Shown one piece after another: positions 694 to 24,952 of a stretch of 25,188 nt of DNA. Position 1 is the stretch's first letter; each line of letters starts with the position of its first letter. This stretch comes from a virus. The notes beneath the pieces were generated by a model. The model made no database searches. It was not told the DNA's origin and saw only the letters and a program-made list of their open reading frames with translations. A program made the position numbers and the translations under genes. The DNA lies in the IMG/VR virus record IMGVR_UViG_3300042309_001530, positions 1 through 25,188 of that record; one strand, written 5' to 3'.

Positions 694-1407
694 ATGAAAG
701 ATAAAGATACAATTCTTTTAGAACAAGCATATCAAAGTATTTTTGAAAATGAAATGGGTTATCCTGCAAACTGGAATAAAGGATTTCAACATCCAATAAG
801 AATAGCATCAGGAGGACAAGAAGTCCCTTTTATAAAGGATGGAAGATGGTATCTTTATGTTTGGGATAGTCAAAAACAAAAACATTATATATATTCTTAT
901 ACGGATGATAGATTTTACGATGATGATTATTTTTCAGATATACCAAAAATTAATAAAGACGAGGTTGATGACTTTAAAAGTGTTGCAAAAGAGAGCGTTG
1001 AATTGAACGAAAATTTGGTAAGAGGTTTGGGAAAATTGGCATTGGGAGCCGCGATGGCTGCCAGCCCGATGCTTTCAAAGGCAAGCCCACCAGAGAATCC
1101 TAATTATCCTGTTGTTGCACAGCAAGTAAATACCATGCAGGATAATTTAAAGACTGCGAATTTAATTTCAAATATATCCAAACAAGCCGAGGATGTGGCT
1201 TTAAAACCAAAAAACAGCGAAATTGGTCAAACGATTAGTTTAGATCGTTTAAGGGACCAATTAAAGAAAGCATTTAATGTCCAGACTGATGACGAATTAA
1301 ATAATAAGATAGACGAGTTCTTAAACAAATATAAAGACTCTGACTATAAAATTTTATTTAACGGTCTTAAATTTTTAAAAGCAAAAGCACCGACTGTTAC
1401 TATTTAA
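694..1407 (+). CDS. CTS-type protein with an internal signal-like segment
   Basis: This 237-aa protein is not recognised. Its N-terminus (MKDKDTILLEQAYQSIFEN) is an amphipathic helix ending in IFE, like the capsid-targeting sequence that T4 prohead protease removes after I/L-x-E. Residues about 20-80 are aromatic-rich and could form a small beta domain. Around residues 105-125, after the sequence VELNE, comes a stretch rich in Gly, Ala and Leu (GLGKLALGAAMAASPML) that reads like a bacterial signal peptide or a short membrane helix. The C-terminal half is charged and helical. It starts one base after the stop of the subtilisin-like gene, and its stop overlaps the stop of the convergent gene at 1404 by four bases (TTAA). 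Packaging in the capsid is inferred from the N-terminus only. Confidence 0.8.
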   Translation: MKDKDTILLEQAYQSIFENEMGYPANWNKGFQHPIRIASGGQEVPFIKDGRWYLYVWDSQKQKHYIYSYTDDRFYDDDYFSDIPKINKDEVDDFKSVAKESVELNENLVRGLGKLALGAAMAASPMLSKASPPENPNYPVVAQQVNTMQDNLKTANLISNISKQAEDVALKPKNSEIGQTISLDRLRDQLKKAFNVQTDDELNNKIDEFLNKYKDSDYKILFNGLKFLKAKAPTVTI

Positions 1408-2138
1408 CTCTTGACAGCATTAAGAGGAATATTTTGTCCTTCTTTACCGTGGAATTCTATGATTTCCCCGTTTAATCTTATTCCGCCGATTTTATATGGG
1501 TCCAAATCATAAGATGTTAACCCACCTCTTAATTCATTTCTTAATTTGTTTTGGATGATTCTTTTTGCTCTTGCGATATAAGCTTTGTCTCCTCCTCTTG
1601 GAGAACCGTCCTTGTTTAAAGGAATTTCATTTATATCTTTCTTGGGTTTTTCCTCACCAGCAGCTAAAAGTTCCGGCTTACCTTGAACCTGTCCTAAAAT
1701 ATTAAAATAATCACCAACTACATTATATCTAATTCCTTTTCCAAGATCTCTGGCGTATACGTCTTGTTTTTCCCTGTTTGCAACCGGATCAAATGGTTTC
1801 GATAACGAAGCGATCAACTCTGCTTTTGCTTTTTCTTCGTATTCATCTTGTGGTTGATAATTTTGAATAACATTAAGATTATGTTCTTTTAAGTTGCCGT
1901 AGTTTATACCGAGATTTACAACAAATCTTTTCGTCGGTCCATTTGGGCGTTCGCCTTTTTTAACATCCGCCGTACCTTGGGTTTGATATATAAAAGATGC
2001 AAATTTAGCACCTTTGGACAAAAAATTTTTTAAATCATTATATAATTTTTCGTTATCGGGTTGTTCCGGTATATATTCCGCTTGATTTTGATCAATGTTT
2101 TCTAAAATATTTTTATATGTTAAATCAAATTTATTCAT
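1404..2138 (-). CDS. CTS-type hypothetical protein
   Basis: This 244-aa protein begins MNKFDLTYKNILEN, another N-terminal helix ending in a possible prohead-protease site (ILE). The middle (FASFIYQTQG..RFVVNLGINYGN) and the C-terminus (IGGIRLNGEIIEFHG) look like beta strands. I have a weak memory of similar small-barrel proteins in marine T4-like phages, too weak to name a function. A stretch near residues 180-205 is rich in Arg and Lys. The gene is alone on the minus strand between two plus-strand genes. It has a late-promoter-like box (AATAAATA) nine bases upstream of its ATG and shares a TTAA stop overlap with the gene before it. Because it is single and inverted, it may have been inserted as a unit. 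Confidence 0.8.
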   Translation of the reverse strand: MNKFDLTYKNILENIDQNQAEYIPEQPDNEKLYNDLKNFLSKGAKFASFIYQTQGTADVKKGERPNGPTKRFVVNLGINYGNLKEHNLNVIQNYQPQDEYEEKAKAELIASLSKPFDPVANREKQDVYARDLGKGIRYNVVGDYFNILGQVQGKPELLAAGEEKPKKDINEIPLNKDGSPRGGDKAYIARAKRIIQNKLRNELRGGLTSYDLDPYKIGGIRLNGEIIEFHGKEGQNIPLNAVKS

Positions 2139-2147
2139 GTTTTTATA

Positions 2148-2155
2148 TATTTATT
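2148..2155 (-). promoter_or_regulatory. Late-promoter-like box AATAAATA
   Basis: On the minus strand AATAAATA lies nine bases upstream of the ATG at 2138. It is back to back with the plus-strand TATAAATA at 2157, with one base between. Confidence 0.55.
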
Positions 2156-2156
2156 C

Positions 2157-2164
2157 TATAAATA
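2157..2164 (+). promoter_or_regulatory. Late promoter TATAAATA
   Basis: A perfect TATAAATA, twelve bases upstream of the ATG at 2177. It probably drives the four-gene run to 4773. Confidence 0.65.
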
Positions 2165-2176
2165 TTCAAATACTAT

Positions 2177-3073
2177 ATGTTAACTTTTGAAAAATATTTT
2201 TTGACGGAAACACATGATGCTTATAAAGTAGGTGATTTTTTAAATGTCCATGCCGGAAAATCATTAATCGTTAAAAATTTAAAAGATGAAAACGGGATCG
2301 CATTTGTATTGTTGAAAACCGTTGATGAATCACAAAAATATAAAGGCACCTTTTTACAAATAGATTTGGATTCCAATAATATAATCGCCCATACAATGTA
2401 CCCATCTTATGATATGGCGATTAAAAAGTACAATGATATTATAGATAAAGCTTCAAAATATTCTACTTTGTCTGAAGCCATAAAAGTTCCGTTTGGGGGG
2501 TATGAAGATTATAAAGGAAAAGCAAAGGTTTATGTAAATTTAAGGGCATCTCTCCCCAAAGAAAGAAAACTTGTTTATTCGATCCAAGGATATGTACCTA
2601 GACCAGACACAAATAAAAAATCTTATAAAGTTATAGGTTATAATAATCAGTTAGTATTGGGTGATGTAAAGTTTTCTATTATAGAAGATAAATGGAAGCA
2701 AGTTCAAACCGATGGCGGTAAAAAAAATGTACATTCTACTGTGGTAGGAAATATTTTAAATGAAGAACCAAAAAAGCTTTCTACATATATAACATACGAT
2801 CCTAGAAAATATAGGTATTTCGTAAGATTTGAAAACGGCACCGCGATACCAATTAAAGCGGCGTCTAAAGTTGCGTTTAATCCTGATGGGTTGACAGCAG
2901 ATGGCGTTATTGATATGGAACCGAGTGAAGTGCGTCCCGAAGGAGCGTTATTAACACCCGAAGAACTTTATTATATGCAAAGAAGAAAAGAAGAACTAAA
3001 ACAAGATAGTCTTTTAAGAAGAAGAAAAAAAAGATTTTTAAATAAAATAAACCAAACAAACAATGAAAATTGA
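2177..3073 (+). CDS. CTS-type hypothetical protein with basic C-terminus
   Basis: This 298-aa protein starts MLTFEKYFLTETHD, an N-terminal helix ending in FLTE, as in T4-type capsid-targeting sequences. The body alternates hydrophobic and polar residues and looks like mixed alpha/beta; no catalytic motif is visible. The last 40 residues are strongly basic and charged (RRKEE.., then LLRRRKKRFL), suggesting a nucleic-acid-binding or coiled tail. The start is supported by a perfect TATAAATA box at 2157-2164, twelve bases upstream. It is the first gene of a run of four on the plus strand (to 4773); its stop overlaps the start region of the next small gene at 3063 by 11 bases. The function is unknown. 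Confidence 0.82.
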   Translation: MLTFEKYFLTETHDAYKVGDFLNVHAGKSLIVKNLKDENGIAFVLLKTVDESQKYKGTFLQIDLDSNNIIAHTMYPSYDMAIKKYNDIIDKASKYSTLSEAIKVPFGGYEDYKGKAKVYVNLRASLPKERKLVYSIQGYVPRPDTNKKSYKVIGYNNQLVLGDVKFSIIEDKWKQVQTDGGKKNVHSTVVGNILNEEPKKLSTYITYDPRKYRYFVRFENGTAIPIKAASKVAFNPDGLTADGVIDMEPSEVRPEGALLTPEELYYMQRRKEELKQDSLLRRRKKRFLNKINQTNNEN

Positions 3074-3227
3074 TATATCATTCAAACAATACTTAGAAGA
3101 AAAAAAAGCAAAGCGGGACCGTTGCCTTAAAAAAGCAGATTCCGTTTATGGTAAAAAAACAAGTGCATACAAATCAGGAGCGGTTGTTAAATGTAGACAA
3201 GGTAAAATCTGGAAAAAGAAAAAATGA
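3063..3227 (+). CDS. Small basic Cys-containing CTS protein (54 aa)
   Basis: This short gene reads MKIDISFKQYLEEKKAKRDR and then a basic core with two Cys, one in DRCLKKADSVYG and one in VVKCRQGK. The pattern (RCxxKxxSxYxxxxSAYxSGxxVKCR) is one I recognise from small proteins that recur in T4-like marine phages, usually behind a capsid-targeting-like N-terminus. Here the N-terminus ends in YLEE, which fits a prohead-protease site. The start overlaps the end of the upstream gene by 11 bases, and its TGA overlaps the ATG of the next gene (ATGA), so translation is probably coupled. Its length, Lys/Arg content and Cys pair suggest a DNA-binding or internal head protein; that is inference. Confidence 0.75.
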   Translation: MKIDISFKQYLEEKKAKRDRCLKKADSVYGKKTSAYKSGAVVKCRQGKIWKKKK

Positions 3228-3481
3228 AATTCGACGAAGCAATAACTAATATTCTAGAAGGTTTTGATAAAGAAAAAAAACAAGGTTTGCGTGGTTGGTT
3301 TTCTAGAAATAACGGTAAGGGTTGGATTGATTGTAAAACCGGTAAACCTTGTGGTAGACAAAAAGGAGAAAAAAGAAAAAGTTATCCTGCTTGCCGACCA
3401 ACCAAATCGATGTGTAATTCCAGAAAAAAACATAAAAAAGGTTCAAAAAGAATTTCTTGGAAAAAAGGAGATAAAGTTTAA
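3224..3481 (+). CDS. Small basic Cys-rich CTS protein (DUF5872-like)
   Basis: This 85-aa protein starts MKFDEAITNILEGFDKE, a helix ending in ILE|G, a possible prohead-protease site. The rest is very basic and contains four Cys (DCKTGKPCGRQKG, YPACRPTKSMC). The block GWxDCKTGKPCGRxKGEKRKxYPACRPT is a recurrent small phage and bacterial domain that I associate with DUF5872; I could not check that accession. The start is fixed by the ATGA overlap with the 54-aa gene before it; the next gene follows its stop after two bases. The four Cys could bind a metal. A second open frame at 3264-3524 on the same strand is a shadow of this gene. Confidence 0.78.
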   Translation: MKFDEAITNILEGFDKEKKQGLRGWFSRNNGKGWIDCKTGKPCGRQKGEKRKSYPACRPTKSMCNSRKKHKKGSKRISWKKGDKV

Positions 3482-3483
3482 TT

Positions 3484-4773
3484 ATGAAAAATTCGGATCA
3501 AATATTATTAGAAAAAATATATGATGATATTAATTTTAATAAATTTGTATCGGAATTGGGGTTGGTTTCAGAAGCTGATTGGAGTGGAAAATATAGTGAT
3601 GTACAAAAAACTTGTTTTTCACCAGAATCCGTAGCAGACGCTCTTAATAAACAATTGGAAAGATATGCATTATCAGCAAAAGAAAAAAAAGATTCTGAAA
3701 AAATAAACCCAGCAGAATTTCCATTAATATCAAAAGGAAATATAGGAAAAACTCAACTAGTTTCCGGTGGTGATATTGATGTCGAAGAATTTAAAAAATT
3801 GTTAATGAAGCGTCCGAATACAATATTCAGCGATACGACAAAAGGTTTGAATTCAAGTGATGATAATGTAATAACAAAAATGACTGGTATACCGGCTCTT
3901 CGTGGTATTATTTATGATGAACAAGAAAACAATTTTTACGTTATAAATACGTGCAAAGGAGCGGGTTCGTGTACAGTGGGTTGTTACGCTTTAAAGGGTA
4001 GATATATTTATATGGACGCTAGAAATCAAAGTTTAATGAATAGATTGCAATTTCTTATCAATCATCCTGATGATTATGAAAAAATGGCGTATATGGAAGC
4101 TGAACGTTTCGCCTTTGAGGCAAAACAAACCGGAAAAAAACTAGAGCTTCGGTGGAATGATTCCGGTGATTTTTTTAGTGATTCTTATTTTGAAATGGTA
4201 GTTAGAATTACTAAAAAATTACAAGCTAATAATTATCCAATTAAATCTTATGCCTATACCAAGATGGGAAAATATTTAGATCTTGGTCGTGAACACGGTA
4301 TGGAAATGACATTTTCTCTTGGTGCTAAAAAAGAACAAAGAGATATTGTTGGTGATTTATCAGACGAAAAAGTTGCTATCACAGTAAGACCATTAAAAAT
4401 CGACAAAAAAAGCGGAAAAAAAGAAGGTCATATAAAATTTATAGATTTATTTGTAAGAGCTAAAGATAAAAATGGAAAGTTATCCGCTCACATGGAAGCC
4501 GGTGATGACGGTAAACCTATTTTTATAAATGATCAAGCTCGAATGGAATTAAAAAATAGAATTGTAGAATATTTTAATAATCCACCAAAAACCGATAAAG
4601 AAAATCAAGGGCTTAAAAATCTTTTAGATATCAACAAATTAATATATACGGATGAACTTCCAAACGAAGTCTCTGATAAAAGAGAATACGATTTAATAGT
4701 ATTACCGTTCGGTGATAATGAAAAACCAGCCCAACGAAGTGATGTTAGATTTATATTCTTAATGTTTCATTAA
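3484..4773 (+). CDS. Gp88-like Cys-rich protein with CTS-type N-terminus
   Basis: This 429-aa protein has an N-terminus (MKNSDQILLEKIYDDIN..) nearly identical in pattern to those of 694 and 16849, followed by LVSE|A as a possible prohead-protease site. Near residues 158-168 there is a three-Cys motif, TCKGAGSCTVGCYA (C-x5-C-x3-C). It is followed by RNQSLMNRLQFL, then LRWNDSGDFFSDSYF and YAYTKM. This order matches the phage gene-product-88 type domain (Cys motif with CYA, an RN..R segment, a LR.N.SGDF block, an aromatic-T-K strand), of unknown function. Three close Cys could hold an Fe-S cluster, but the spacing is not the canonical radical-SAM C-x3-C-x2-C. It is the last gene of the plus-strand run and shares a TTAA stop overlap with the convergent gene at 4770. 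Confidence 0.75.
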   Translation: MKNSDQILLEKIYDDINFNKFVSELGLVSEADWSGKYSDVQKTCFSPESVADALNKQLERYALSAKEKKDSEKINPAEFPLISKGNIGKTQLVSGGDIDVEEFKKLLMKRPNTIFSDTTKGLNSSDDNVITKMTGIPALRGIIYDEQENNFYVINTCKGAGSCTVGCYALKGRYIYMDARNQSLMNRLQFLINHPDDYEKMAYMEAERFAFEAKQTGKKLELRWNDSGDFFSDSYFEMVVRITKKLQANNYPIKSYAYTKMGKYLDLGREHGMEMTFSLGAKKEQRDIVGDLSDEKVAITVRPLKIDKKSGKKEGHIKFIDLFVRAKDKNGKLSAHMEAGDDGKPIFINDQARMELKNRIVEYFNNPPKTDKENQGLKNLLDINKLIYTDELPNEVSDKREYDLIVLPFGDNEKPAQRSDVRFIFLMFH

Positions 4774-5579
4774 GAATTAAATTTTCCAGTAAAAAGAAAT
4801 TTAATTCTTTGCCAAAAACCAATTCTTGTCGGCGTTCCGACGGTAATATTTTTTGAATCCGAAAAACTTCTCTTCGGGAACGATGGTTTGTATATAGACT
4901 CTTCTACAGTAGTATGCTGTTTCTTCTTTCTGTTAGTCATGTATTTTGTTTGATATACTTCAGTAAAAGACTTTAGATTATATTTATCACCAATGTAATA
5001 TGTTTCTCCGGGATTCAATTTTCTAAAATAATATTTGTTTTTATATCCTTTTCTTTTTGTTTTGGGTGATACTCTATTGAAAAGATGATCATAAATACCT
5101 ACTGTATAATTTGGGTTTTTAATAATATCTTCAAAATTTAAAAAAATATCAACCAAAGTTCCGTTTTTTAAAAACGAACCAATTCCACATCTCTTCAAAC
5201 CGGTTGGTATTTTAATTCCTGTATTTTTATTTTCCATATTGTTTAAAACATTTGAAATGATATTATTTGTGTTTTGTTTATTTAAAACTGTAGGTCTATG
5301 GTTTAAAACGCTAATTTTAAGTTGCGGTGTTTTCCCAATATTTATTTTCTTAAAAATAAAATTTCTATGTGTCTTTTGTTGACCGTTTATGCATAGTTTA
5401 ACTTGTTTTGGTTCAAAGCCATCCCTTTTTATATCTTTCATATTGCTATAGACTTTTATAATATACCCATTTAAATCATATTGAGCAATTATATAGTCTT
5501 TACTTTTATCGGTTCTGTTAATATTTCTGTTTGCTATAGGCAATGTCATCTGTTGAAGTTTGAGTTCTATATTTTCCAT
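4770..5579 (-). CDS. NUMOD-repeat DNA-binding-like protein lacking a nuclease domain
   Basis: This 269-aa protein contains a segment at about residues 30-80 (IAQYDLNGYIIKVYSNMKDI..CINGQQKTHRNFIFK) with the pattern of NUMOD/IENR1 modules: y-d-l-d-G-x-x-i-x-x-f-x-s, a short helix, c-l-n-g, then k-T-h-x-g-y-x-w. Such modules accompany HNH and GIY-YIG homing endonucleases and bind DNA. A second, more degenerate copy appears near residues 135-190 (VDIFLNFEDIIKN..YKNKYYFRKL). No HNH, GIY-YIG or LAGLIDADG catalytic motif is visible, so this looks like a freestanding DNA-binding protein or a homing-endonuclease remnant. A sigma70-like promoter (5588-5615) ends eight bases before the ATG. Its stop is shared (TTAA) with the Gp88-like gene. 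Confidence 0.68.
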   Translation of the reverse strand: MENIELKLQQMTLPIANRNINRTDKSKDYIIAQYDLNGYIIKVYSNMKDIKRDGFEPKQVKLCINGQQKTHRNFIFKKINIGKTPQLKISVLNHRPTVLNKQNTNNIISNVLNNMENKNTGIKIPTGLKRCGIGSFLKNGTLVDIFLNFEDIIKNPNYTVGIYDHLFNRVSPKTKRKGYKNKYYFRKLNPGETYYIGDKYNLKSFTEVYQTKYMTNRKKKQHTTVEESIYKPSFPKRSFSDSKNITVGTPTRIGFWQRIKFLFTGKFNS

Positions 5580-5587
5580 ACAAACTC

Positions 5588-5615
5588 ATCATAGCAATAA
5601 CCGATTATTTGTCAA
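5588..5615 (-). promoter_or_regulatory. Sigma70-type promoter of the NUMOD-repeat gene
   Basis: On the minus strand: TTGACA (5610-5615), a 16-base spacer and TATGAT (5588-5593). The spacer contains a small inverted repeat (AATAA-tcgg-TTATT) that could be an operator. The ATG at 5579 follows the -10 box after only eight bases, so the leader would be a few bases at most. Confidence 0.6.
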
Positions 5616-5618
5616 ATT

Positions 5619-6068: not shown

Positions 6069-6088
6069 GGAAATACTTATAAAAAATA

Positions 6089-7570: not shown

Positions 7571-7789
7571 ATGCCAGCCGTATCAAAAAAACAAGAAAGA
7601 TTTTTCAGAGTAGTAGCCGCAGCAAAAGAGGGTAAAAAAGGAATATCAAAAAAGGCTAAAGATGTAGCTAAACAAATGTCTAAAAAAGATATTAAGAAGT
7701 ATACAAAAGCCAAAAAAAATGCGCCCGAAGAAGCTAAAGAAAAAAATGAATCTTTTAATTTAGCGGATGAAATTTATAAATTGCTTTAG
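7571..7789 (+). CDS. Small basic DUF3008-like protein
   Basis: This 72-aa protein begins MPAVSKKQERFFRVVAAAKEGK and continues with a Lys-rich helical part (VAKQMSKKDIKKYTKAKK). The pattern M-P-A-x-S-x-K-Q-x-R-F-F, a middle S-x-x-x-x-x-V-A-K-x-M and then D-x-K-x-[FY]-x-x-T/A-K-x-K is that of the short DUF3008-type proteins found in phages and bacteria; their function is unknown. An extra acidic tail (NESFNLADEIYKLL) follows the usual end. The stop TAG overlaps the stop of the convergent gene at 7786 by four bases. Confidence 0.75.
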   Translation: MPAVSKKQERFFRVVAAAKEGKKGISKKAKDVAKQMSKKDIKKYTKAKKNAPEEAKEKNESFNLADEIYKLL

Positions 7790-8160
7790 GCTCTAAATTC
7801 TAAAGCATTCCAAACATCAAGCATATCATTAGCTGATCCGGTGATCTTATCATTCATCCACGCTTCTATTTCCAGTCCACTCTCTAAACTATCTAATATT
7901 CTTTGAGTATGAGCACATAATGACTTTAAATTTGCTATTGTCATTCTTTTAAATTGATCATCTGTTTGTGGTGCTGGTAATGCCGGTGTTACATCAACTA
8001 CCGGCATTGTTTCGGGTTGATCGACAACTGGTGGGGCTGATATATTGTCTAAAGCATTTTCGACACCGGTGGTTTGGTTATCTTGATTTATGGTAGCTAA
8101 AGTGTTTTCGAAAATTTTTTCATAATTTTCCATCAATGTCGTTAAGTCTTTCTTATTCAT
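7786..8160 (-). CDS. CTS-type protein with C-terminal helical ExW domain
   Basis: This 124-aa protein begins MNKKDLTTLMENYEKIFENT, with IFE|N as a possible prohead-protease site. A Pro/Val/Asp-rich linker follows (about residues 38-68). The C-terminal domain (IANLKSLCAHTQRIL, then LEIEAWMNDKITGSANDMLDVWNAL) is helical. The E-x-E-x-W-[MV]-x-x-K-I motif recurs, to my memory, in small virion-associated proteins of T4-like phages. A late box CATAAATA lies six bases upstream of the ATG. No enzymatic motif is visible. Confidence 0.75.
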   Translation of the reverse strand: MNKKDLTTLMENYEKIFENTLATINQDNQTTGVENALDNISAPPVVDQPETMPVVDVTPALPAPQTDDQFKRMTIANLKSLCAHTQRILDSLESGLEIEAWMNDKITGSANDMLDVWNALEFRA

Positions 8161-8166: not shown

Positions 8167-8174
8167 TATTTATG
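8167..8174 (-). promoter_or_regulatory. Late-promoter-like box CATAAATA
   Basis: Read on the minus strand, CATAAATA lies six bases upstream of the ATG at 8160, with only A/T bases between. Confidence 0.6.
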
Positions 8175-12590: not shown

Positions 12591-13145
12591 TTAAAGACCT
12601 CTTGTATATCTAGCGGGTATTACTGGAGGTAATCCCATGGATTTTCTTTTTTGATCTTGTAATTGAGATTGTGACATATGAATTTTGTCATTTACTTCTC
12701 TTGAAATTTCTGATTCGCTTTTGCCGCTAAAATTGCTTGGTAATAAATTTAATATTTTCTTTATAATATCATCTTCATATCGATTTTCTACATTCTGACT
12801 AAAATTGCTATCATTTTTAATATATTGATATAATAAAGATTTTATTTCTTTTGTATATTCTTCATTTTTAGAAGCGTCTGCTTCTGATTTTAAATTTTTT
12901 ACTTTTTCCTGTAATTCACTATTATTTTTTAAATTATTGATTATTACTTTAACTAATTCTTTTATATTTTTATTTTTTACGAAATTTCTATATCTATTCA
13001 AAACAAACTCAGTAGCATATGCTAAAAATATAAAACCACCAAAAACTACAGCGGTTCCTAATCCCGTGTCTGGTACTGTTTCTTCTGTATGAAGATTATT
13101 ATAAACATCTTCTAATTTAATTTGATCTTTTTGATTTGAATACAT
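12591..13145 (-). CDS. CTS-like single-pass membrane/coiled-coil protein
   Basis: This 184-aa protein has an N-terminus (MYSNQKDQIKLEDVYNNLHTEE) that fits the KDQI-x-LE-x-x-Y pattern of the longer CTS group in this window. A membrane helix follows at about residues 30-48 (GTAVVFGGFIFLAYATEFVL), then a long charged helical section and a Pro-containing basic end (MGLPPVIPARYTRGL). It has a perfect late box (TATAAATA) eight bases upstream of the ATG and is the first gene of the 13145-to-9675 run. If the N-terminus is really removed by prohead protease, the mature form would start just before the hydrophobic helix. The function is unknown. Confidence 0.74.
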   Translation of the reverse strand: MYSNQKDQIKLEDVYNNLHTEETVPDTGLGTAVVFGGFIFLAYATEFVLNRYRNFVKNKNIKELVKVIINNLKNNSELQEKVKNLKSEADASKNEEYTKEIKSLLYQYIKNDSNFSQNVENRYEDDIIKKILNLLPSNFSGKSESEISREVNDKIHMSQSQLQDQKRKSMGLPPVIPARYTRGL

Positions 13146-15521: not shown

Positions 15522-15672
15522 GATTTAGTTTTTCAATAATTTTATCTTTAATTTCAATTTGTTTTTCTAACTGTTTAATTTTAGCTAATAATTCTTCTAT
15601 AGTTTCTTGTTGGGTATTTCTCCAAGAGGAAGCCAATTCATCAGCTGTCATATCCGATTTAAATGTTATCAT
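15496..15672 (-). CDS. Small coiled-coil protein (58 aa) between the M14 gene and nrdA
   Basis: The protein starts MITFKSDMTADELASSW and then forms a heptad-like helix (TIEELLAKIKQLEKQIEIKDKIIEKL). Its ATG overlaps the TGA of the M14-type gene (ATGA), and its last 26 bases overlap the start of nrdA, so the three genes are tightly coupled. It is not recognised. A Zwf- or SlyX-like small coiled coil is possible, but nothing specific supports this. The start is fixed by the overlap. Confidence 0.65.
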   Translation of the reverse strand: MITFKSDMTADELASSWRNTQQETIEELLAKIKQLEKQIEIKDKIIEKLNHEQRNILA

Positions 15673-16235
15673 ATCAAACTGTTTATGATTGCAATTAATG
15701 TATCAACTCTTGTTTGTATATCTTCCGTGGAAGAGGGAGTTTCTAAAGTGCAGTATGGAATGTTTCTTTTTTTCAATGCTATTTCAAGAGATCCTTTATA
15801 CGGTTGTTGTCCATTTGTAATCACACCATCATCAGTTATATCATTATGAGCTTTAGTTGTCAATTTTATTTTACTTTTAGCTAAGGAGTTTTTCACTTTA
15901 TCTTCTATGTCCGATGAACAGTAAGCATAAACACCATCTGCTTCGTCATCTTCATGTAAAGATATAACAAGTTTAGGATTTATTTTTTCTATTTCCGCAA
16001 GCAATCTATCTTGTAAATCATTTTTATCATCGGTATCAAAATGTCTATTTGGATCTTCGCTACCAATTCTTCTTTTGTTTGTTTTGTTGATGTTTGAAAA
16101 TACTTTAATGTTTGGTTTATTTTTAAAAAATTGTGCAGCTAAATCTCCCGCTGGTTCATCACCATGTAATCCACTTATGATTACATAATCATAATCTGAA
16201 TTTAAAATTTGTTCGACTAAAAAATCGAATTTCAT
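15669..16235 (-). CDS. M14-type zinc carboxypeptidase / amidase-like protein
   Basis: This 188-aa protein carries the metal site of the M14 (AstE/AspA-like) family: SGLHGDEPAG (H24-x-x-E27), EDPNRHF (the D-x-N-R substrate-binding segment, R64), SLHEDD (H94, third ligand) and LETP (E165, the catalytic base). Family members remove C-terminal residues or acyl groups from small substrates, including murein peptides, so a role in peptidoglycan or amino-acid-derivative hydrolysis is possible; the substrate cannot be read from sequence. The first residues (MKFDFLVEQIL) resemble the short CTS-type N-termini of the window. A perfect inverted repeat (16248-16268) lies 12 bases upstream of the ATG. A degenerate paralogue lies at 5619-6068. 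Confidence 0.8.
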   Translation of the reverse strand: MKFDFLVEQILNSDYDYVIISGLHGDEPAGDLAAQFFKNKPNIKVFSNINKTNKRRIGSEDPNRHFDTDDKNDLQDRLLAEIEKINPKLVISLHEDDEADGVYAYCSSDIEDKVKNSLAKSKIKLTTKAHNDITDDGVITNGQQPYKGSLEIALKKRNIPYCTLETPSSTEDIQTRVDTLIAIINSLI

Positions 16236-16300: not shown

Positions 16301-16849
16301 TTAACGATCATAAGGAGATTCAAATTGTCCATAATATGGCTCATCATCCCCATATGAATCTGGTCCAGAATAATTATCTCTATATTTATTTTCTGCTCCA
16401 GAAACACCAGCGTCTTTTATTTCTTTCCAATTAATTTCTTCTGCTTTTGTTTTTAATGCTTTAATAATTGCATTATATTTTTCATCACCTATTTGTTCCG
16501 GTGTTATTACCACATTTTGACTCTCTTCTGTAGGATGTTGTAATATAAGCCTTATATTACTCCATTCATCATAATCAAATTCTATTTCATCATCACTACC
16601 CGGATCTGTCATTGTGTCGGGATATCCTTTGCGGATATAATAATATGTTATTAAATTTCCCGCTATGCTAAATTTTTTTCCGGATTTATTCTCTGGAAAA
16701 AATACTGAAACATCAATTTCTGGAGAATTTGTATTTTCCGTACCATCAAATTCCGATTCGTGTTGAAGTGTTTCATTTAAAATTTTAACAGGGTTTAAAA
16801 CTTTTTTAAAATATAAACTTTCTAATATTATTTGATCTTTGTTTCTCAT
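16301..16849 (-). CDS. CTS-type acidic hypothetical protein
   Basis: This 182-aa protein begins MRNKDQIILESLYFKKVLN and then KILNE|T, a possible prohead-protease site; the opening matches those at 694 and 3484. The rest is acidic with a beta-rich middle (KKFSIAGNLITYYYIRKGYP, then NIRLILQHP) and a Gly/Tyr/Asp-rich end (GPDSYGDDEPYYGQFE). It is not recognised. It has its own late box (CATAAATA) six bases upstream of the ATG although it sits between nrdB and nrdA, so it can be switched on late independently of them. Confidence 0.78.
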   Translation of the reverse strand: MRNKDQIILESLYFKKVLNPVKILNETLQHESEFDGTENTNSPEIDVSVFFPENKSGKKFSIAGNLITYYYIRKGYPDTMTDPGSDDEIEFDYDEWSNIRLILQHPTEESQNVVITPEQIGDEKYNAIIKALKTKAEEINWKEIKDAGVSGAENKYRDNYSGPDSYGDDEPYYGQFESPYDR

Positions 16850-16855: not shown

Positions 16856-16863
16856 TATTTATG
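16856..16863 (-). promoter_or_regulatory. Late-promoter-like box CATAAATA inside the nrd cluster
   Basis: On the minus strand CATAAATA lies six bases upstream of the ATG at 16849 and directly after the nrdB stop codon. Confidence 0.6.
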
Positions 16864-19551: not shown

Positions 19552-20352
19552 ATGGATAGTATTTTTTTAAAGTTAGAGGAAGCGTTTTCTGATGTTTTTT
19601 TTATACAAAAAAATCATACATATAAAATAAAAGGAAACCCTTCTAAAAGTTCGGTTTCGGGTGTTATCAAAAAATACGAATCAGTTTTTGATTCACAGAA
19701 TATTTCAGAAAAAATAGCAAAAAAACGAGGGGTATCGCAATCGGAAATATTAGAAGAATGGGATTTTAAAAGAGAATATTCTTGTCATAAAGGATCCGAA
19801 TTTCATTTGTTTGTTGAAAATTTTTTAGCGAGAAAACAAATATCAATTGATGATGATAGTTTAAGTTTATTTTTTAATAAACATAAAAATTTTTTAAATG
19901 AAAATTCCATAAATACATATAAAGAAGAACTTAAAAAACTTATAAAAAATTTTATAATGTTTTATAATTGGTGGAAAAAAGATCATATATTGTTTAAGTC
20001 TGAGTTTGTAATCGGTGATGAACAGACTGGTATATGCGGCACTATAGATAATCTTTCGTATAATAAAAAGACAAATGAGTTTGTCATTTTTGATTACAAA
20101 ACAAACAAAGAAATAAAAAATAAAAATGAATACGGAGAAAAAATGCTTGGTATCTTATCACATTTAGATAAATGCGAATTTGTAAAATATAGTTTGCAGC
20201 TATCGTTGTATTCGACTATAATAGAAAAGATAACGTCTATAAAAATACCAAATTCATATATTATATGGGTTAATGGAGAAGATACGTTTGAGTGTATAAA
20301 AACATTAGATTTGAAAAAAGAATCGTTAATGATTCTTAATGATTTTTTGTAA
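19552..20352 (+). CDS. RecB/Cas4-like PD-(D/E)XK nuclease
   Basis: From the ATG at 19552 this is 266 residues. It shows the RecB-family nuclease order: GSEFHLFVENFL (an early His/Glu helix), FKSEFVIGD, GICGTIDNL (the first metal Asp), FVIFDYKTNKE (D-x-K) and YSLQLSLY (Q-x-x-x-Y, the motif shared by RecB, AddB and Cas4). Such enzymes cut or resect DNA ends. An in-frame ATG at 19519 would overlap the AAA gene by 32 bases; the start at 19552, one base after that gene's TGA, is preferred because such junctions recur here. Coupling with the AAA ATPase suggests a joint role in recombination or host-DNA degradation. Confidence 0.82.
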   Translation: MDSIFLKLEEAFSDVFFIQKNHTYKIKGNPSKSSVSGVIKKYESVFDSQNISEKIAKKRGVSQSEILEEWDFKREYSCHKGSEFHLFVENFLARKQISIDDDSLSLFFNKHKNFLNENSINTYKEELKKLIKNFIMFYNWWKKDHILFKSEFVIGDEQTGICGTIDNLSYNKKTNEFVIFDYKTNKEIKNKNEYGEKMLGILSHLDKCEFVKYSLQLSLYSTIIEKITSIKIPNSYIIWVNGEDTFECIKTLDLKKESLMILNDFL

Positions 20353-20359
20353 AAAAATG

Positions 20360-20374
20360 TAGATTTGTAATCTA
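20360..20374. repeat. Small inverted repeat between nuclease and scaffold-like genes
   Basis: TAGATT and AATCTA pair around TGT. No T-run follows, so it is a poor terminator; it may be an operator or a chance event. Confidence 0.3.
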
Positions 20375-20379
20375 TCAGG

Positions 20380-20387
20380 TGTAAATA
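20380..20387 (+). promoter_or_regulatory. Late-promoter-like box TGTAAATA
   Basis: TGTAAATA lies 14 bases upstream of the ATG at 20402. Confidence 0.5.
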
Positions 20388-20401
20388 TTCTTACAAACAT
20401 T

Positions 20402-21313
20402 ATGACTATGGACCCTATATCAAAACTCTATTTAGATGTAATAAACGAAGCAAGCCTTCCTGATTCAAAGGTTAAAACAGATCTTAAGGTCGGCGCTCCA
20501 TTTGGAGATTCTTCAAACGAAAAAAACACATCCAATTTCCAAAAGGGAACAGGAACCGATAACGTTGAAGGATTGGAAACTCCCGAAGAAGCTCCCGATG
20601 AACTTACATGTGATGTAGATTCTACAATTAAAAAGATTTCAAAGGAGTCATCAAATCCTTTTGATGCGTTATATAATAAAATTATTTCCGAAGAAGGAAG
20701 TTTCAATTTTTCAACCGAAAAGGATAACGAATTGGATTCATCTGATTTAGAAAATTCTTTTGGCGATGATTCAATTGGTGATTCTGATGATTCGGATGTT
20801 TCTGAATTCGCGGATTCCGAAGATGATTCTTCAGAAGAAGTTACTTTAACTTTAAATAAAGAACTCGCAAGCGAATTAATCGAACTTTTACAGGCCGCTT
20901 TAGGTGAAGATTCTTCCGAAGATGAATCAGAAGAAGAATCTTCCGAAGATGAATCAGAAGAAGATGAATCATCAGACGATGAAACCGGAAATTCAGCATT
21001 CGGCGAAACCGATGGTTCTTCTGATGATAACAATGTATCAAAAGAATCTTTCGCATTAGACGATGCCGAAGAACTCGGTGATGCCTTGGTTGATGTTGAA
21101 AAATTAAGTGCTGGATTAAACAACCCAAACAACATCGTCGTTAAAGGAAATCTTAAGCCTAGCAAGAAAAACGCTGAAACACCATCTACAGGAAAACATT
21201 CTGATGGAAAATTAAAACCTCATAATACACAAACAGGTGTTTCAAAGTTAACTAAAAAGAATCAAAAAGTTGAAGGCGGAGTTAAAGAGGGAGACTTTTT
21301 TAACAATAAATAA
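20402..21313 (+). CDS. Acidic CTS-type protein, prohead-scaffold-like
   Basis: This 303-aa protein begins MTMDPISKLYLDVINEAS, with VINE|A as a good prohead-protease site; an alternative ATG at 20408 would give MDPISKLYLDVINEA. Residues about 100-220 are extremely rich in Asp, Glu and Ser, with a helical LNKELASELIELLQAAL segment, and the end is basic (GKHSDGKLKPH..KKNQKVEGG). Acidic, cleavable internal proteins of this kind are known in T4 (gp22 and the small core proteins), so a prohead core or scaffold role is likely but unproved. A tandem 27-base repeat encodes part of the acidic tract. The gene is followed by a strong intrinsic terminator, fitting high-level expression, and lies two genes before the gp14-like neck gene. 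Confidence 0.72.
   Translation: MTMDPISKLYLDVINEASLPDSKVKTDLKVGAPFGDSSNEKNTSNFQKGTGTDNVEGLETPEEAPDELTCDVDSTIKKISKESSNPFDALYNKIISEEGSFNFSTEKDNELDSSDLENSFGDDSIGDSDDSDVSEFADSEDDSSEEVTLTLNKELASELIELLQAALGEDSSEDESEEESSEDESEEDESSDDETGNSAFGETDGSSDDNNVSKESFALDDAEELGDALVDVEKLSAGLNNPNNIVVKGNLKPSKKNAETPSTGKHSDGKLKPHNTQTGVSKLTKKNQKVEGGVKEGDFFNNK
20912..20964 (+). repeat. Tandem 27-base coding repeat in the acidic protein
   Basis: The unit starting TCTTCCGAAGATGAATCAG occurs at 20912 and again, identical over 26 bases, at 20939. It encodes S-S-E-D-E-S-E-E-E and could change length by slippage. Confidence 0.8.
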
Positions 21314-21337
21314 TAACCTTTAAAAAATATATAAAAT

Positions 21338-21364
21338 AAGCCCCGCTCTTTGCGGGGCTTTTTT
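21338..21364 (+). terminator. Strong intrinsic terminator after the acidic protein gene
   Basis: AAGCCCCGC (21338-21346), a five-base loop TCTTT and GCGGGGCTT (21352-21360) form a perfect 9-bp stem, followed by TTTT. It is the only G+C-rich terminator in the window. The late-type box of the next gene starts at its last T. Confidence 0.93.
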
Positions 21365-21371
21365 GTAAATA
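21364..21371 (+). promoter_or_regulatory. Late-promoter-like box TGTAAATA abutting the terminator
   Basis: TGTAAATA lies six bases upstream of the ATG at 21378 and begins at the end of the terminator T-run. Confidence 0.5.
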
Positions 21372-21377
21372 TATATA

Positions 21378-21776
21378 ATGACATTTCTTGAATATTATAA
21401 TTTAAGTAAATCTGAAAATAATGTTAATTCATTGAATACTGGTTCATTATCTAATGATAAAAGAACGCATCGACATGAAAAAGCCTTATTCGGTATAAAT
21501 CAAATAATGGGTAAAACCAAAAAACTAAATTCGGTTCCCGAATATTTGACCCATAAAGATGATGATATTAATCAATGTATTAAAACAGGAAAAGATCAAC
21601 CAATAAATCCAGCCAGAGCCGAACAAATTAAAAAAGATTACGGTCTTTGTCCTACTCACGAAGAACCAGAAAAAGCTATAAAACAAACAAATGTATACTT
21701 AGTATTAACTCCAAATGGGTTATATAAATTAACTTTCAAAGGCAAAAATTATGGAAACGGTAAGGTTTTTAGATAA
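21378..21776 (+). CDS. CTS-like hypothetical protein upstream of the neck gene
   Basis: This 132-aa protein starts MTFLEYYNLSKSENN, a short form of the CTS-type N-terminus. The middle is Lys- and Asp-rich (THKDDDINQCIKTGKDQPI), and the last third is beta-like (TNVYLVLTPNGLYKLTFKGKNYG). It is not recognised. The start is supported by the TGTAAATA box six bases before it. Its last 26 bases overlap the start of the gp14-like gene, so the two are co-translated and this protein may take part in head or neck assembly. Confidence 0.68.
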   Translation: MTFLEYYNLSKSENNVNSLNTGSLSNDKRTHRHEKALFGINQIMGKTKKLNSVPEYLTHKDDDINQCIKTGKDQPINPARAEQIKKDYGLCPTHEEPEKAIKQTNVYLVLTPNGLYKLTFKGKNYGNGKVFR

Positions 21777-22380
21777 ATTAACTAATTTTCAAGAAAGAAA
21801 AAATTTTTCATACTGGTGGAAAGAACAAATCAGTATGTATGGACAAGAAGTTAATTATTTTTCTAGTCTTGTTCAATTGTCCGCTATGAATTCTTTATAT
21901 GGAGAGGATGTAGCATCGGGATATTCTGAAGGTAAAAAATTAATAGTTCAATTAAATTTAAACAATGATTCTTATCTTTTAAGTAAATTCGGTGTGCTTG
22001 CTGATAGTGATATGACCGGTGTAATACATCCCGATATGTATGAAGATATTTTTGGTAAAGGTAGCGAACCCAAAATGGGGGATCTTATGGAATTATCTGA
22101 ATTTGGATCGGATAGAATTAATTTTCCAAAAAGAGGGGCTACTGTTTATGAGCTTACCGAAGTAATTGATGAATTTCAATTAAATGCAATAGCTGGACAT
22201 TATGTTTGGTTTTTTAAAGCTAAGAGATACGACTTCTCTTACGAAAATGGATCTCCCGGATCTGGCGTGGGTAATAATCCAGCTAATGATAATGACATTA
22301 TCGAACAAGCATCATTGGACAATTTTAATTATGATGAAGATAATTTATGCAGTAAAGACTCTGTATATGGAGATTATTAA
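21751..22380 (+). CDS. gp14-like neck (head-closure) protein
   Basis: This 209-aa protein has the layout of the T4 gp14 neck family: an early QISMYGQEVNYF strand, LYGEDV, then LLSKFGVLADSDMTGVIHPDMYEDIFG, GDLMELSEFG, a YELTEVIDEFQLN strand pair and HYVWFFKAKRYDFSYE. In T4, gp14 with gp13 forms the neck that joins the DNA-filled head to the tail. The acidic C-terminal tail (NPANDNDIIEQ, NFNYDEDNL) also fits. Its stop overlaps the convergent gene at 22377 by four bases (TTAA). The call is by motif order, not by search. The neighbouring acidic CTS protein supports a head-assembly cluster. Confidence 0.68.
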   Translation: METVRFLDKLTNFQERKNFSYWWKEQISMYGQEVNYFSSLVQLSAMNSLYGEDVASGYSEGKKLIVQLNLNNDSYLLSKFGVLADSDMTGVIHPDMYEDIFGKGSEPKMGDLMELSEFGSDRINFPKRGATVYELTEVIDEFQLNAIAGHYVWFFKAKRYDFSYENGSPGSGVGNNPANDNDIIEQASLDNFNYDEDNLCSKDSVYGDY

Positions 22381-22640
22381 GAATTAACTTTATTTAATTC
22401 CTCTTCGTAATAAAAATCAATATTATAATTCTGTTCTAAAATTTTTCTTAAATACATATTTTCTGTGGATTTTATATATTTGCTTATTGCTATTGGTTTT
22501 ATATTTTTTTCAAACGATATATTCTTTTTTTCTGATGCATCAGCTATTATATTTATTGCTTCGTATAGAGCCATCCAGCGAGCTAAAATAGCTGATTCTT
22601 CATGAATCACGGTCCAAGATTTATTATTCTTTGTTTTCAT
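22377..22640 (-). CDS. Hypothetical protein (87 aa)
   Basis: Not recognised. The protein is largely helical (EESAILARWMALYEAINIIADASEKK) with a charged end (NIDFYYEEELNKVNS). It overlaps the end of the upstream zinc-ribbon membrane-protein gene by 17 bases, so it is probably co-translated with it. Its stop is shared (TTAA) with the gp14-like gene on the other strand. Confidence 0.62.
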   Translation of the reverse strand: MKTKNNKSWTVIHEESAILARWMALYEAINIIADASEKKNISFEKNIKPIAISKYIKSTENMYLRKILEQNYNIDFYYEEELNKVNS

Positions 22641-23040
22641 CTATAATATTGTTTGCTTGTAAGTTTAAAACTTCTGTTTGACGAGCCACCACGTATTGTA
22701 TTTTCACGGAATTTTTTTTGTTGCAAGCCGTACAAGTGAATTCTGATGTTTGAAGATCATCAGCAATAAAAGTCATTACATTAGGGTGATTACAATATGC
22801 GCATTCCAATATAGTGGATAATGGTTCTAAAACATCAAGTTCTTTTTTTAATCTTTGCTGTGTTAAGTAAGAATTTATTACACTCGCAACAAAGGAAAAT
22901 AATATATATTGACAAGAAAAAGCCAATAAAAAAGTAGTTAAAAAATTACCACCTATATTATATACAGCAAGCCCTATTAATATAGAAATTATTAAAACTA
23001 CTACAGTAGATTTTAATACGTTTTTTATCTTATCGCTCAT
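22624..23040 (-). CDS. Two-helix membrane protein with zinc ribbon
   Basis: This 138-aa protein has two membrane helices (about residues 10-28 and 33-58, STVVVLIISILIGLAVY and FLTTFLLAFSCQYILFSF). After a charged linker comes a zinc ribbon of two Cys pairs (LECAYCNHPN and FTCTACNKKNS), then a short tail. The N-terminus and the ribbon are probably both cytoplasmic. Similar small membrane zinc-ribbon proteins occur as hypotheticals in large marine phages. The ribbon may bind protein or nucleic acid at the membrane; this is inference. Confidence 0.72.
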   Translation of the reverse strand: MSDKIKNVLKSTVVVLIISILIGLAVYNIGGNFLTTFLLAFSCQYILFSFVASVINSYLTQQRLKKELDVLEPLSTILECAYCNHPNVMTFIADDLQTSEFTCTACNKKNSVKIQYVVARQTEVLNLQANNIIDENKE

Positions 23041-23061
23041 ATAAGAATAATATGATATAAA

Positions 23062-23568
23062 TTATTTTTTGTCAATTTTATTTGGTAACTTTATTACGAC
23101 TTCGGTATTTTTAAAATAATTTGGATTATTATTTTGAGACGAATTCATTTTTATTTCGGGGGATGCTTTTAATGCTAAATCTGAAATTTCATCAATTTTA
23201 AATGCTGCTTTTTTAGTTGCTATTACTATTTTTTCCAAATATTTGTGAATTTTATTTAATTCTTGTTTTTGATTTATATTTAAAACTGGCACGTTGCCGC
23301 AGTCACTTATCTTCTGCATAACATTAATTATGTTAAATGCTGCTGTTGCCATATCTTCAGAAGCGGTTTGTAAAGGCCATGGATATGATATAGGTTGTTC
23401 TACAGCAGGAGATTCCATATCAGTAGTAGCTCCGCTTTGATATGGGTGATGATAACCGTCTCTAGTGGAAATTGGAGCAAAATCTTTTCTAGGTGATGCG
23501 CTTGATGCTGGATATGTTTTATTTACATTTCTATCGTAAATTTCATTTACCAGATCATAGAATTTCAT
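23062..23568 (-). CDS. CTS-type hypothetical protein
   Basis: This 168-aa protein begins MKFYDLVNEIYDR, with LVNE|I as a possible prohead-protease site. A low-complexity part rich in Ser, Pro and Tyr follows (about residues 18-70). The rest is a helical region (AFNIINVMQKISDCG, then LNKIHKYLEKIVIATKKAAFKI) and a polar tail. It is not recognised. It starts one base after the stop of the zinc-ribbon gene (TAAtATG), so it uses that gene's late-type box. Confidence 0.76.
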   Translation of the reverse strand: MKFYDLVNEIYDRNVNKTYPASSASPRKDFAPISTRDGYHHPYQSGATTDMESPAVEQPISYPWPLQTASEDMATAAFNIINVMQKISDCGNVPVLNINQKQELNKIHKYLEKIVIATKKAAFKIDEISDLALKASPEIKMNSSQNNNPNYFKNTEVVIKLPNKIDKK

Positions 23569-23569
23569 A

Positions 23570-23755
23570 TTACCTTAATGCACCGACTTTAGATAGATTT
23601 CCACATCTACCACATATCCATTTGCATAATTTTTGGGACTCTTTTGTTTTGGGATCAAAAGATTCTACGATTCTACCCATAACAGCAGTACCACAAAAAG
23701 AACATGATATTGGCTTGTTTTCTACTTTTTGATATTGTGGTTTAGTATTTGTCAT
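23570..23755 (-). CDS. Small zinc-ribbon protein (61 aa)
   Basis: The protein shows SCSFCGTAV (C-x-x-C) and LCKWICGRCGNLS (C-x3-C-x-x-C), enough to bind zinc in a ribbon. It is otherwise unrecognised. A GATAAATA late box lies six bases upstream of the ATG, and the CTS gene follows after one base. It may bind DNA, RNA or a protein partner. Confidence 0.74.
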   Translation of the reverse strand: MTNTKPQYQKVENKPISCSFCGTAVMGRIVESFDPKTKESQKLCKWICGRCGNLSKVGALR

Positions 23756-23761
23756 ATTATG

Positions 23762-23769
23762 TATTTATC
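23762..23769 (-). promoter_or_regulatory. Late-promoter-like box GATAAATA
   Basis: On the minus strand GATAAATA lies six bases upstream of the ATG at 23755. It overlaps the stop region of phoH. Confidence 0.55.
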
Positions 23770-24566
23770 TATTTTTGTTTCGGTTTCCAAGTATCTTTTT
23801 CGTTTTCTAATTTATTTACAACAAATTTAACAAAATTTGATCTGACAATATCTTCTTTTGTGAATTTAAAATGTACTATTCCGTGTTTTTCTGATTCTTC
23901 ATCAGAAAAAATATCACATACTTTTGAAAATCCTCCTGATTTATTTTCAGCTAAATCCGATTGCATCGGGTCGCCACAGAATATAATTTTTGAAAATTCA
24001 CCCATTCTTGTTATTGTAGTAACAAGTTCTCTGAATGTTATGTTTTGGCATTCATCTACGATAATCGCTTTAGCGGCCCAATGTAAACCTCTGATATAAT
24101 TAACTGGTGTGGCACTAAATCTTTCATCATTTCTTAAACGATTCAGCGAACCATTATCTAATAATTCTTCGAGTTTTTCCATAAAAGGTGCCATGTAAGC
24201 TTCGAATTTTTCATCGATTGTACCCGGTAGATATCCTATTTTAGAATCTGCACTTTCAACTGCACTTCTAATAAAAACTATATCTGATATTTTTTTATTT
24301 TTTAATAGATTTAAAGCCCCATAAACAGCTGTTAATGTTTTTGATGTTCCTGCCGGACCTTCTATTAAAACACATCTTACATTTTTATCTTTTATTATTT
24401 CTATTAATTTTTTTTGTTTTTCCGTCCATGGCAATTCTTTTATATTAAAATCAAAATTTACTTTTTCCCGTTGAAAAACATAAGGTGATTTATCTAAAGT
24501 TTCTTTTTGATTGTTATTTAATTCCAAAGAATTAACCTCTTTTTTTTTGATTTTTTTCAGTTTCAT
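23769..24566 (-). CDS. phoH: PhoH-like P-loop ATPase
   Basis: This 265-aa protein has a charged N-terminal section (about 1-50) and then the PhoH core: LPWTEKQKKLIE, Walker A (GPAGTSKT), FIRSAVESADSKIGYLPGT, Walker B (AIIVDECQN), FCGDPMQSDL, and the closing FTKEDIVRSNFVKFVV. PhoH-like genes are very common in marine and T4-like phages; the protein is an ATPase related to superfamily 1 helicases, with a role in RNA or phosphate metabolism proposed but not settled. It starts eight bases after the stop of the upstream CTS gene and has no late box of its own. Confidence 0.93.
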   Translation of the reverse strand: MKLKKIKKKEVNSLELNNNQKETLDKSPYVFQREKVNFDFNIKELPWTEKQKKLIEIIKDKNVRCVLIEGPAGTSKTLTAVYGALNLLKNKKISDIVFIRSAVESADSKIGYLPGTIDEKFEAYMAPFMEKLEELLDNGSLNRLRNDERFSATPVNYIRGLHWAAKAIIVDECQNITFRELVTTITRMGEFSKIIFCGDPMQSDLAENKSGGFSKVCDIFSDEESEKHGIVHFKFTKEDIVRSNFVKFVVNKLENEKDTWKPKQK

Positions 24567-24574
24567 TAAAAAAA

Positions 24575-24952
24575 TTAAGCTTTTGGTGCGTTTGATGCGT
24601 AAGAATTGTCTGGTGCTTTAACTGAATTTGATTGCGTTTGATTTGTAGGGGGGTTTTCCGTTTTGTTTTCTTGGTTGTTATTTAATTTTTGATATCCTAT
24701 TGTTTTTAAAACTGGATCTAACTCTTCTGGTTTTGTTATTTTCAATGCTGCCATTAAAGATTTAATTATATCTTCGGGTGTGTTTGGTGTTTCTTTTTGA
24801 CCGGTTAAAATATCTTTTACTGTGTTAAGAACCTCGCCAGCGGCCTTCGTGCCTACGTTTGGTGGCACTGTAGTATTGGCTAATACGTTTTGAGGTACGT
24901 TTAAATTTTGTTCTTTTATAAAAGAATCTATTACATTGTAAAATTTTTTCAT
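24575..24952 (-). CDS. CTS-type low-complexity protein
   Basis: This 125-aa protein begins MKKFYNVIDSFIKEQNLNV, with FIKE|Q as a possible prohead-protease site. A Pro/Val/Thr-rich linker, a helical segment (TPEDIIKSLMAALKITKPEELDPVLKTIG) and an Asn/Gln/Pro-rich disordered tail follow. It is not recognised. It starts one base after the stop of the small basic Cys gene at 24954 (TAAtATG) and so belongs to the same transcription unit. Confidence 0.76.
   Translation of the reverse strand: MKKFYNVIDSFIKEQNLNVPQNVLANTTVPPNVGTKAAGEVLNTVKDILTGQKETPNTPEDIIKSLMAALKITKPEELDPVLKTIGYQKLNNNQENKTENPPTNQTQSNSVKAPDNSYASNAPKA

What the first reader, a model, noticed from the sequence alone, without database searches (positions are those of the whole stretch)
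694..24952. A large set of proteins with capsid-targeting-like N-termini
At least eleven proteins begin with a 10-25-residue amphipathic helix that ends in, or runs into, an I/L-x-E site, as in T4 internal head proteins. One form reads M-x-x-[KS]-D-Q-I-x-L-E-x-x-Y (694, 3484, 16849, 13145); a shorter form reads M-K-F-x-x-x-[LIV]-x-E (23568, 24952, 3224, 2177, 16235). Others are at 2138, 8160, 3063, 20402 and 21378. The bodies behind them differ completely: a Gp88-like Cys protein, an M14-type peptidase, small basic Cys proteins, an acidic scaffold-like protein and unknowns. The T4 rule (prohead protease cuts after I/L-x-E) is established; that all these are packaged cargo is inference. If true, the head carries an unusually rich payload delivered with the DNA.
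Basis: partly seen in the sequence, partly recalled or inferred. Interest (0 to 1): 0.75.

Follow-up and report, generated by a model that had tools for sequence, protein, structure and literature searches.

The report
Shared head-packaging tags on phage cargo
Large uncultured relatives of phage T4 put one of a few short, interchangeable address labels on the front of dozens of unrelated proteins, which most likely sends them into the virus head so that they are injected into the bacterium with the DNA, giving a simple sequence key to a phage's injected arsenal.

Summary
The observation largely holds. All 14 listed genes are open frames at the given places; eleven have a strict I/L-x-E near the N-terminus, one V-x-E, two (13145, 21378) none. 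The window is a fragment of an uncultured T4-superfamily phage. All eight relatives of at least 111 kb carry a gp21-type S77 prohead protease and gp23 with conserved L/I-x-E sites. There are three tag types: A, MK(N/S)KDQILLExxYxxILxE; B1, MxSFKxYIxE, which resembles T4's capsid-targeting sequence at its mutationally defined residues; B2, MKFDxLVxxILxE. Exact A tags sit on 69 distinct proteins in 48 unrelated body families of viral contigs, with no genuine hit in 257 Gb of bacterial and archaeal genomes. The same body occurs behind different tags in about nine families, including an ADP-ribosyltransferase found with A, B1 and B2, and window genes 1404 and 2177. Bodies include ADP-ribosyltransferases, an ArdC domain, a helicase, acetyltransferases and CCA-adding enzymes. 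Best reading: T4-type packaging and injection of a large, fast-changing payload, with a tag type (A) unlike the T4 sequence. Packaging and cleavage are inferred; no virion was examined.

The parts
694..1407 (+). form-A tagged gene, MKDKDTILLEQAYQSIFENE; tag about 694-753
   Evidence: homologues L296, L275, L255 all with form A
682..687 (+). TAAATA late-promoter-like motif 12 nt before the ATG of 694
1404..2138 (-). B-type tagged gene, MNKFDLTYKNILEN; same body carries form A in relatives
   Evidence: L317, L322, L303
2177..3073 (+). B1 tagged gene, MLTFEKYFLTE, L5_gp82-like body (PF25735)
   Evidence: same body with A-like tag in G005_154888 and B2 tag in L281
3063..3227 (+). small basic Cys protein with B1-like N-terminus MKIDISFKQYLEEK
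3224..3481 (+). small basic Cys protein with B2-like tag MKFDEAITNILEG
   Evidence: L202 homologue MNLKQLILDVIEEG
3484..4773 (+). form-A tagged GP88-family protein (PF17338), MKNSDQILLEKIYDDI
   Evidence: family seen with A and B1 tags
7786..8160 (-). form-A-like gene MNKKDLTTLMENYEKIFEN; homologues carry MRSKDQILLENAYSSI
12591..13145 (-). form-A variant MYSNQKDQIKLEDVYNN, no I/L-x-E
15669..16235 (-). B2-like tag MKFDFLVEQILN on an M14/AspA-like body (weak Pfam match, HGDE motif)
16301..16849 (-). form-A tagged gene MRNKDQIILESLY, unknown body
20402..21313 (+). acidic protein, MDPISKLYLDVINEA; lineage-conserved, probably core/scaffold
21751..22380 (+). T4-type head-closure protein used to find the lineage; not itself tagged
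23062..23568 (-). conserved protein with N-terminal V/I-x-E (MKFYDLVNEIYD), probably head/core
24575..24952 (-). B-type N-terminus MKKFYNVIDSFIKE
24954..25187 (-). basic Cys protein cut by the record's end; relative L064:6557-6832 has the tag MSKFDLAVASILEE before a similar body

Best explanation
The N-termini are capsid-targeting propeptides. During late infection each tagged protein is made, often from a T4-type late promoter. Its first 10-20 residues bind the growing scaffold core of the prohead, and the gp21-type S77 protease then cuts after an L/I-x-E (about E8-E14 in the B forms; E10 and/or E18-20 in form A). The freed body stays in the head with the DNA and is injected at the next infection to modify or disarm the host. 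Three tag types do the same job and are exchanged between bodies. Shown here: tag sharing by unrelated bodies, tag exchange, protein-level conservation, virus-specificity, presence of the protease and its conserved sites, enrichment of late-promoter motifs. Inferred: packaging, cleavage, injection and the roles of the bodies.
For: Excess over shuffles. Exact form-A peptide on 69 distinct proteins in 48 body families, and in 257 Gb of cellular genomes a single antisense chance hit. Same bodies behind different tags, boundary at residue ~20. S77 and gp23 in 8 of 8 relatives of at least 111 kb and S77 in 4 of 4 tag-bearing records of at least 169 kb. Conserved sites in gp21, gp22, gp23. B1 matches the T4 IPIII signal at residues 4, 7, 8, 10 (PMC9026906). 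45 DNA spellings of KDQILLE; third bases near codon-usage expectation. Late-promoter motif before 53% of A families against 20% of untagged. Bodies include ADP-ribosyltransferases, ArdC domain, helicase, GNAT, like known injected proteins (PMC5512222). Untagged GP88 homologue in phage Gilgamesh.
Against: No virion data. Form A lacks the aromatic residues that target IPIII in T4. Its conservation runs past E10 to Y13-I16, so a cut at E10 alone would not explain it. Some members (13145, 21378) lack an I/L-x-E. Late-promoter enrichment is partial (A 53%, B1 28%). The window itself holds no protease (fragment).
Confidence: 0.84

Rival explanations
1. The tag is a docking or localisation signal for another late structure (membrane, baseplate, replication site) and the proteins are not injected.
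For: Packaging was not observed; form A differs from the T4 signal at the targeting residues.
Against: Form A exchanges with the T4-like B1 on the same bodies; L/I-x-E is retained in tags and in gp21/22/23.
Confidence: 0.09
2. The shared start is a DNA or mRNA element (promoter plus start region, translation enhancer) spread by recombination; the peptide does nothing.
For: Codons 1-10 are about 80% identical within a contig; TAAATA lies close to the start.
Against: 20 nt upstream are only 36-47% identical; KDQILLE is spelled 45 ways in 69 genes; third-base identity 0.65 against 0.58 expected; exchange with unrelated B peptides.
Confidence: 0.03
3. Most of these are scaffold/core proteins degraded in the prohead, not cargo delivered to the host.
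For: 20402 and 23062-23568 are conserved in nearly all large relatives and keep an early site; T4 gp22 and gp67 are cut to pieces (PMC9026906).
Against: Form-A bodies are accessory (21 of 22 without homologue in the other records) and several are enzymes; sites are concentrated in the first ~20 residues (46/69 at 16-22 against 10/69 at 24-30).
Confidence: 0.04

Closest known systems
T4 internal proteins IPI, IPII, IPIII and their capsid-targeting sequence (CTS)
   Same: Short N-terminal signal ending in L/I-x-E on unrelated, variable bodies, in a phage with gp21; B1 (MKSFKQYIKE) parallels IPIII (MKTYQEFIAE) (PMC9026906, PMC3012670, PMC12373910).
   Different: Three signal types, one (A) without the T4 aromatic residues and longer; far more bodies, many enzymatic; an uncultured lineage; the bodies share no sequence with IPI-III that was detected here.
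T4 Alt (packaged ADP-ribosyltransferase)
   Same: A predicted ADP-ribosyltransferase with an N-terminal packaging-type signal.
   Different: PARP/DUF3990-like fold match and a small single-domain protein; target unknown.
Polyvalent proteins of phages and plasmids (PMC5512222)
   Same: Overlapping domain repertoire: ART-PolyVal, ArdC N-terminal domain, helicase, GNAT, proposed to be injected with DNA.
   Different: Here each domain is usually its own protein with its own short tag.
SPN3US / phiKZ head ejection proteins
   Same: N-terminal propeptides removed by a gp21-related prohead protease (PMC10052503).
   Different: There most propeptides are long (111-254 aa), with a different motif.

Membership tests
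T4-type CTS / internal head proteins | Same short N-terminus on unrelated bodies | tested here: met
T4-type CTS / internal head proteins | Aromatic residues at 4 and 7, I/L at 8, E at 10 (B1 tags) | tested here: met
   MKSFKQYIKE, MISFKKYFLLE, MLSFKQFLE against MKTYQEFIAE; some B1 members are one residue shorter or longer
T4-type CTS / internal head proteins | The same residues in form A | tested here: not met
   L8 and E10 kept, but K4 and I7 instead of aromatic residues; so form A is not called a T4 CTS by sequence
T4-type CTS / internal head proteins | gp21-type S77 prohead protease in the genome | tested here: met
   8 of 8 and 4 of 4 large records; the window is a fragment without it
T4-type CTS / internal head proteins | Late expression | tested here: inconclusive
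   TAAATA enriched, A 53%, B2 50%, B1 28%, untagged 20%; no expression data
T4-type CTS / internal head proteins | Present in the virion with cleaved N-terminus, injected | not testable with these tools
   no virion proteomics for this lineage
Polyvalent proteins | Several disparate domains in one polypeptide | tested here: not met
   the bodies examined individually show one recognised domain or enzyme each

The most novel reading that the evidence does not exclude
Form A (MK(N/S)KDQILLExxYxxILxE) is an independent, general head-address signal, not derived from the T4 CTS, by which an uncultured T4-superfamily lineage loads a large, rapidly exchanged set of injected effectors, including ADP-ribosyltransferases, ArdC-like and helicase proteins and a CCA-adding enzyme, from blocks of consecutive tagged genes.
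Probability: 0.6. Interest if true: 0.78.

Novelty: new variant of a known kind. Interest (0 to 1): 0.68.

Why it matters
T4's three internal proteins are injected inhibitors of type IV restriction enzymes (PMC12373910), but injected proteins are otherwise hard to recognise because their bodies share nothing. A virus-specific tag of about 20 residues that exchanges between bodies lets the injected arsenal of a whole uncultured lineage be read from sequence. In this sample the form-A signal alone marks about 90 body families, most of unknown function and good candidates for new anti-defence or host-takeover proteins. It also turns 'what does a prohead core recognise' into a comparison of three signals doing the same job.

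Tried and rejected
Window against phage records by DNA: no match. GP88 protein as bait in phages and viral contigs: no match. PhoH and the phrog_1645 virion structural protein as baits: too widespread to define the lineage. 20-aa form-A consensus by tblastn in isolate phages: no match, but too short a query to be sensitive, so absence from isolates is not claimed. Eisenberg moment as a general test of 'amphipathic' fails for form A residues 5-19. First AlphaFold run with three sequences was unusable; nine sequences gave a usable body. PADLOC hits on tagged proteins are weak and not relied on. Rejected: a purely DNA-level element. Rejected as optional cargo: 20402 and 23062-23568, because they are near-universal in the lineage. 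The 90-family count comes partly from loci fetched with the tag itself and is not a rate; the tag-blind figure is 18 form-A genes in eight relatives plus 4 in the window against 0.05 expected. Gene calls come from a simple script of mine, so a few starts will be wrong.

Full report
What the window is. The window is a whole 25,188-base uncultured virus record with about 41 genes: ribonucleotide reductase, PhoH, dCMP deaminase, HSP20, exonuclease, a T4-type head-closure protein (PHROG 679), a virion structural protein and many unknowns (the names without a family hit are from my reading of the sequences). No phage record matches it by DNA. The head-closure protein found 80 relatives in viral contigs at 57-86% identity. 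Eight of these are 111-226 kb and were taken whole. Their gp23 is about 34-35% identical to the best listed isolates, so this is a T4-superfamily lineage with no close isolate in that collection.

The refutation test. All eight large relatives carry Peptidase_S77 (gp21) and Gp23. Records chosen only because they carry the form-A tag give the same answer: all four of at least 169 kb have S77, one of them more distant by its neck protein at 46%. Smaller records lack it, as expected of fragments. In all eight, gp21 begins with LLVE (E10 or thereabouts), gp22 has conserved sites early in the chain, and gp23 has L/I-x-E ending at 21, 51 and 60, the last aligning close to the T4 maturation site E65. 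The T4 control shows MKTYQEFIAE in IPII and IPIII and LLIE9 in gp21.

The observation. All 14 listed starts are real. Eleven have strict I/L-x-E, one V-x-E, two none (see observation check). Against column-shuffled N-termini of 1,348 proteins, form A is seen 22 times (expected 0.05), the MxF form 56 (expected 19) and any early I/L-x-E 333 (expected 200, s.d. 11). The last figure suggests roughly fifteen excess carriers per record, a rough estimate since homologues across records are not independent.

Three tag types. Form A: M-[KR]-[NST]-K-D-Q-I-L-L-E-x-[AL]-Y-x-x-[IV]-L-x-E. B1: M-x-S-F-K-x-Y-I-x-E and close variants. B2: M-K-F-D-x-L-V-x-x-I-L-x-E. B1 parallels the T4 signal residue by residue. 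For IPIII, mutagenesis placed targeting mainly at residues 4 and 7 and processing at 8 and 10 (PMC9026906); B1 has F4, Y/F7, I/L8, E10. Form A keeps L8 and E10 but has K4 and I7, continues to Y13, and has a second L/I/V-x-E at 16-22 in 46 of 69 proteins against 10 of 69 at 24-30. The form-A targeting unit is therefore probably about 20 residues, with cleavage at E18-20, E10 or both.

Specificity. The exact peptide MKxKDQILLE, back-translated, hits 67 stretches of viral contigs, giving 69 distinct proteins in 48 body families. In 257 Gb of bacterial and archaeal genomes it hits once, antisense inside a methyltransferase-like gene.

Protein-level constraint. KDQILLE is spelled 45 ways in 69 genes. 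Between unrelated bodies, residues 2-13 are 62% identical and bodies 6%. Third bases agree 65% where residues agree, against 58% expected from codon usage. Within single contigs codons 1-10 are about 80% identical, so local copying of the tag also occurs.

Tag exchange. This is the strongest evidence. One family of predicted ADP-ribosyltransferases, 69-93% identical to its first member, occurs with A (MKNKDQILLENLYDSISND-KFSYPL), B1 (MLSFKQFLESKEESD-FSYPL) and B2 (MKFDSLIEKILKEEEI-KFSYPL). Other exchanges: GP88, the family of window gene 3484, with A and B1; window 1404 (B) against L317/L322 (A); window 2177 (B1) against G005_154888 (A-like) and L281 (B2); L267 (A) against MKSFKQYIKE in L263/L285; L321 (A) against L324 (B1); L292 (A) against B1 and B2; L313 (A) against L034 (B-type). 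A GP88 homologue in Streptomyces phage Gilgamesh begins directly at the domain, with no tag.

Cargo. Recognised bodies behind tags: PARP/DUF3990-like ADP-ribosyltransferase (below Pfam cut-offs by sequence; the nine-sequence model has pLDDT 78.6 and its top Foldseek matches are PARP catalytic domains at E about 1e-3, TM about 0.5), ART-PolyVal (E 1e-14), an ArdC N-terminal domain and, next to it, a 986-aa SNF2/ResIII helicase, CCA-adding-type nucleotidyltransferase with HD domain, GNAT acetyltransferase, zeta-toxin-like kinase, GP88 and L5_gp82. In the model the first 18 residues are low-confidence while the body from about residue 20 is confident, matching the exchange boundary. In L264, 13 of the first 17 genes clearly carry an A or B tag and two more loosely, many overlapping end to start. 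No replication or nucleotide-metabolism gene of the window carries a strict A, B1 or B2 tag.

Expression. TAAATA, the core of T4 late promoters, lies before 53% of A families, 50% of B2, 28% of B1 and 20% of the rest, with a peak 12 nt before the ATG. This is a motif count, not expression data.

Reading. The most likely mechanism is T4-type core targeting, cleavage by gp21 and injection. The concept and a B1-like signal are known (a conserved CTS with highly diverse cargo in T-evens, PMC3012670, PMC12373910). What appears new here is the form-A signal, the exchange of several signals on the same bodies, and the size and enzymatic make-up of the set in an uncultured lineage; I found no paper in the held library describing it, which is not proof of absence. 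Packaging, cleavage and injection remain inferred. Genes 20402 and 23062-23568 are better seen as core head proteins.

Noticed in passing
L234:17306-19081 (-), record G006; also record G021: The gp21 prohead protease gene is interrupted in frame by an intein-like insert (PF14890 splicing domain just under its cut-off, weak LAGLIDADG), giving a ~600-aa frame with two S77 pieces.
   Followed up: partly
Large relatives; in the window e.g. 682-687, 8167-8172, 16856-16861, 21366-21371: TAAATA peaks sharply 12 nt before the ATG. With T4 late-promoter geometry the late mRNAs would be almost leaderless; clear Shine-Dalgarno sequences are scarce before window genes.
   Followed up: partly
L264:2-11604: A block in which 13 of 17 genes clearly carry form-A or B1 tags, many with overlapping ends: looks like an island of head-packaged proteins.
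   Followed up: partly
window 20402-21313: The acidic protein repeats the motif inside: MDPISKLYLDVINE near its start and NPFDALYNKIISEE further on, so it may offer more than one protease site or core-binding helix.
   Followed up: no
L263:9706-10359 and L285: MKSFKQYIKE|MAYPVSFSF: the predicted cut after E10 would leave a Met, as if the tag had been placed before an original start codon.
   Followed up: no
L264:5377-6909, L280:2119-3651: CCA-adding-type tRNA nucleotidyltransferase with a form-A tag: an injected tRNA-repair enzyme would be unusual.
   Followed up: no
window 3-692: C-terminal part of a subtilase-type (S8) protease cut by the start of the record; substrate unknown.
   Followed up: no
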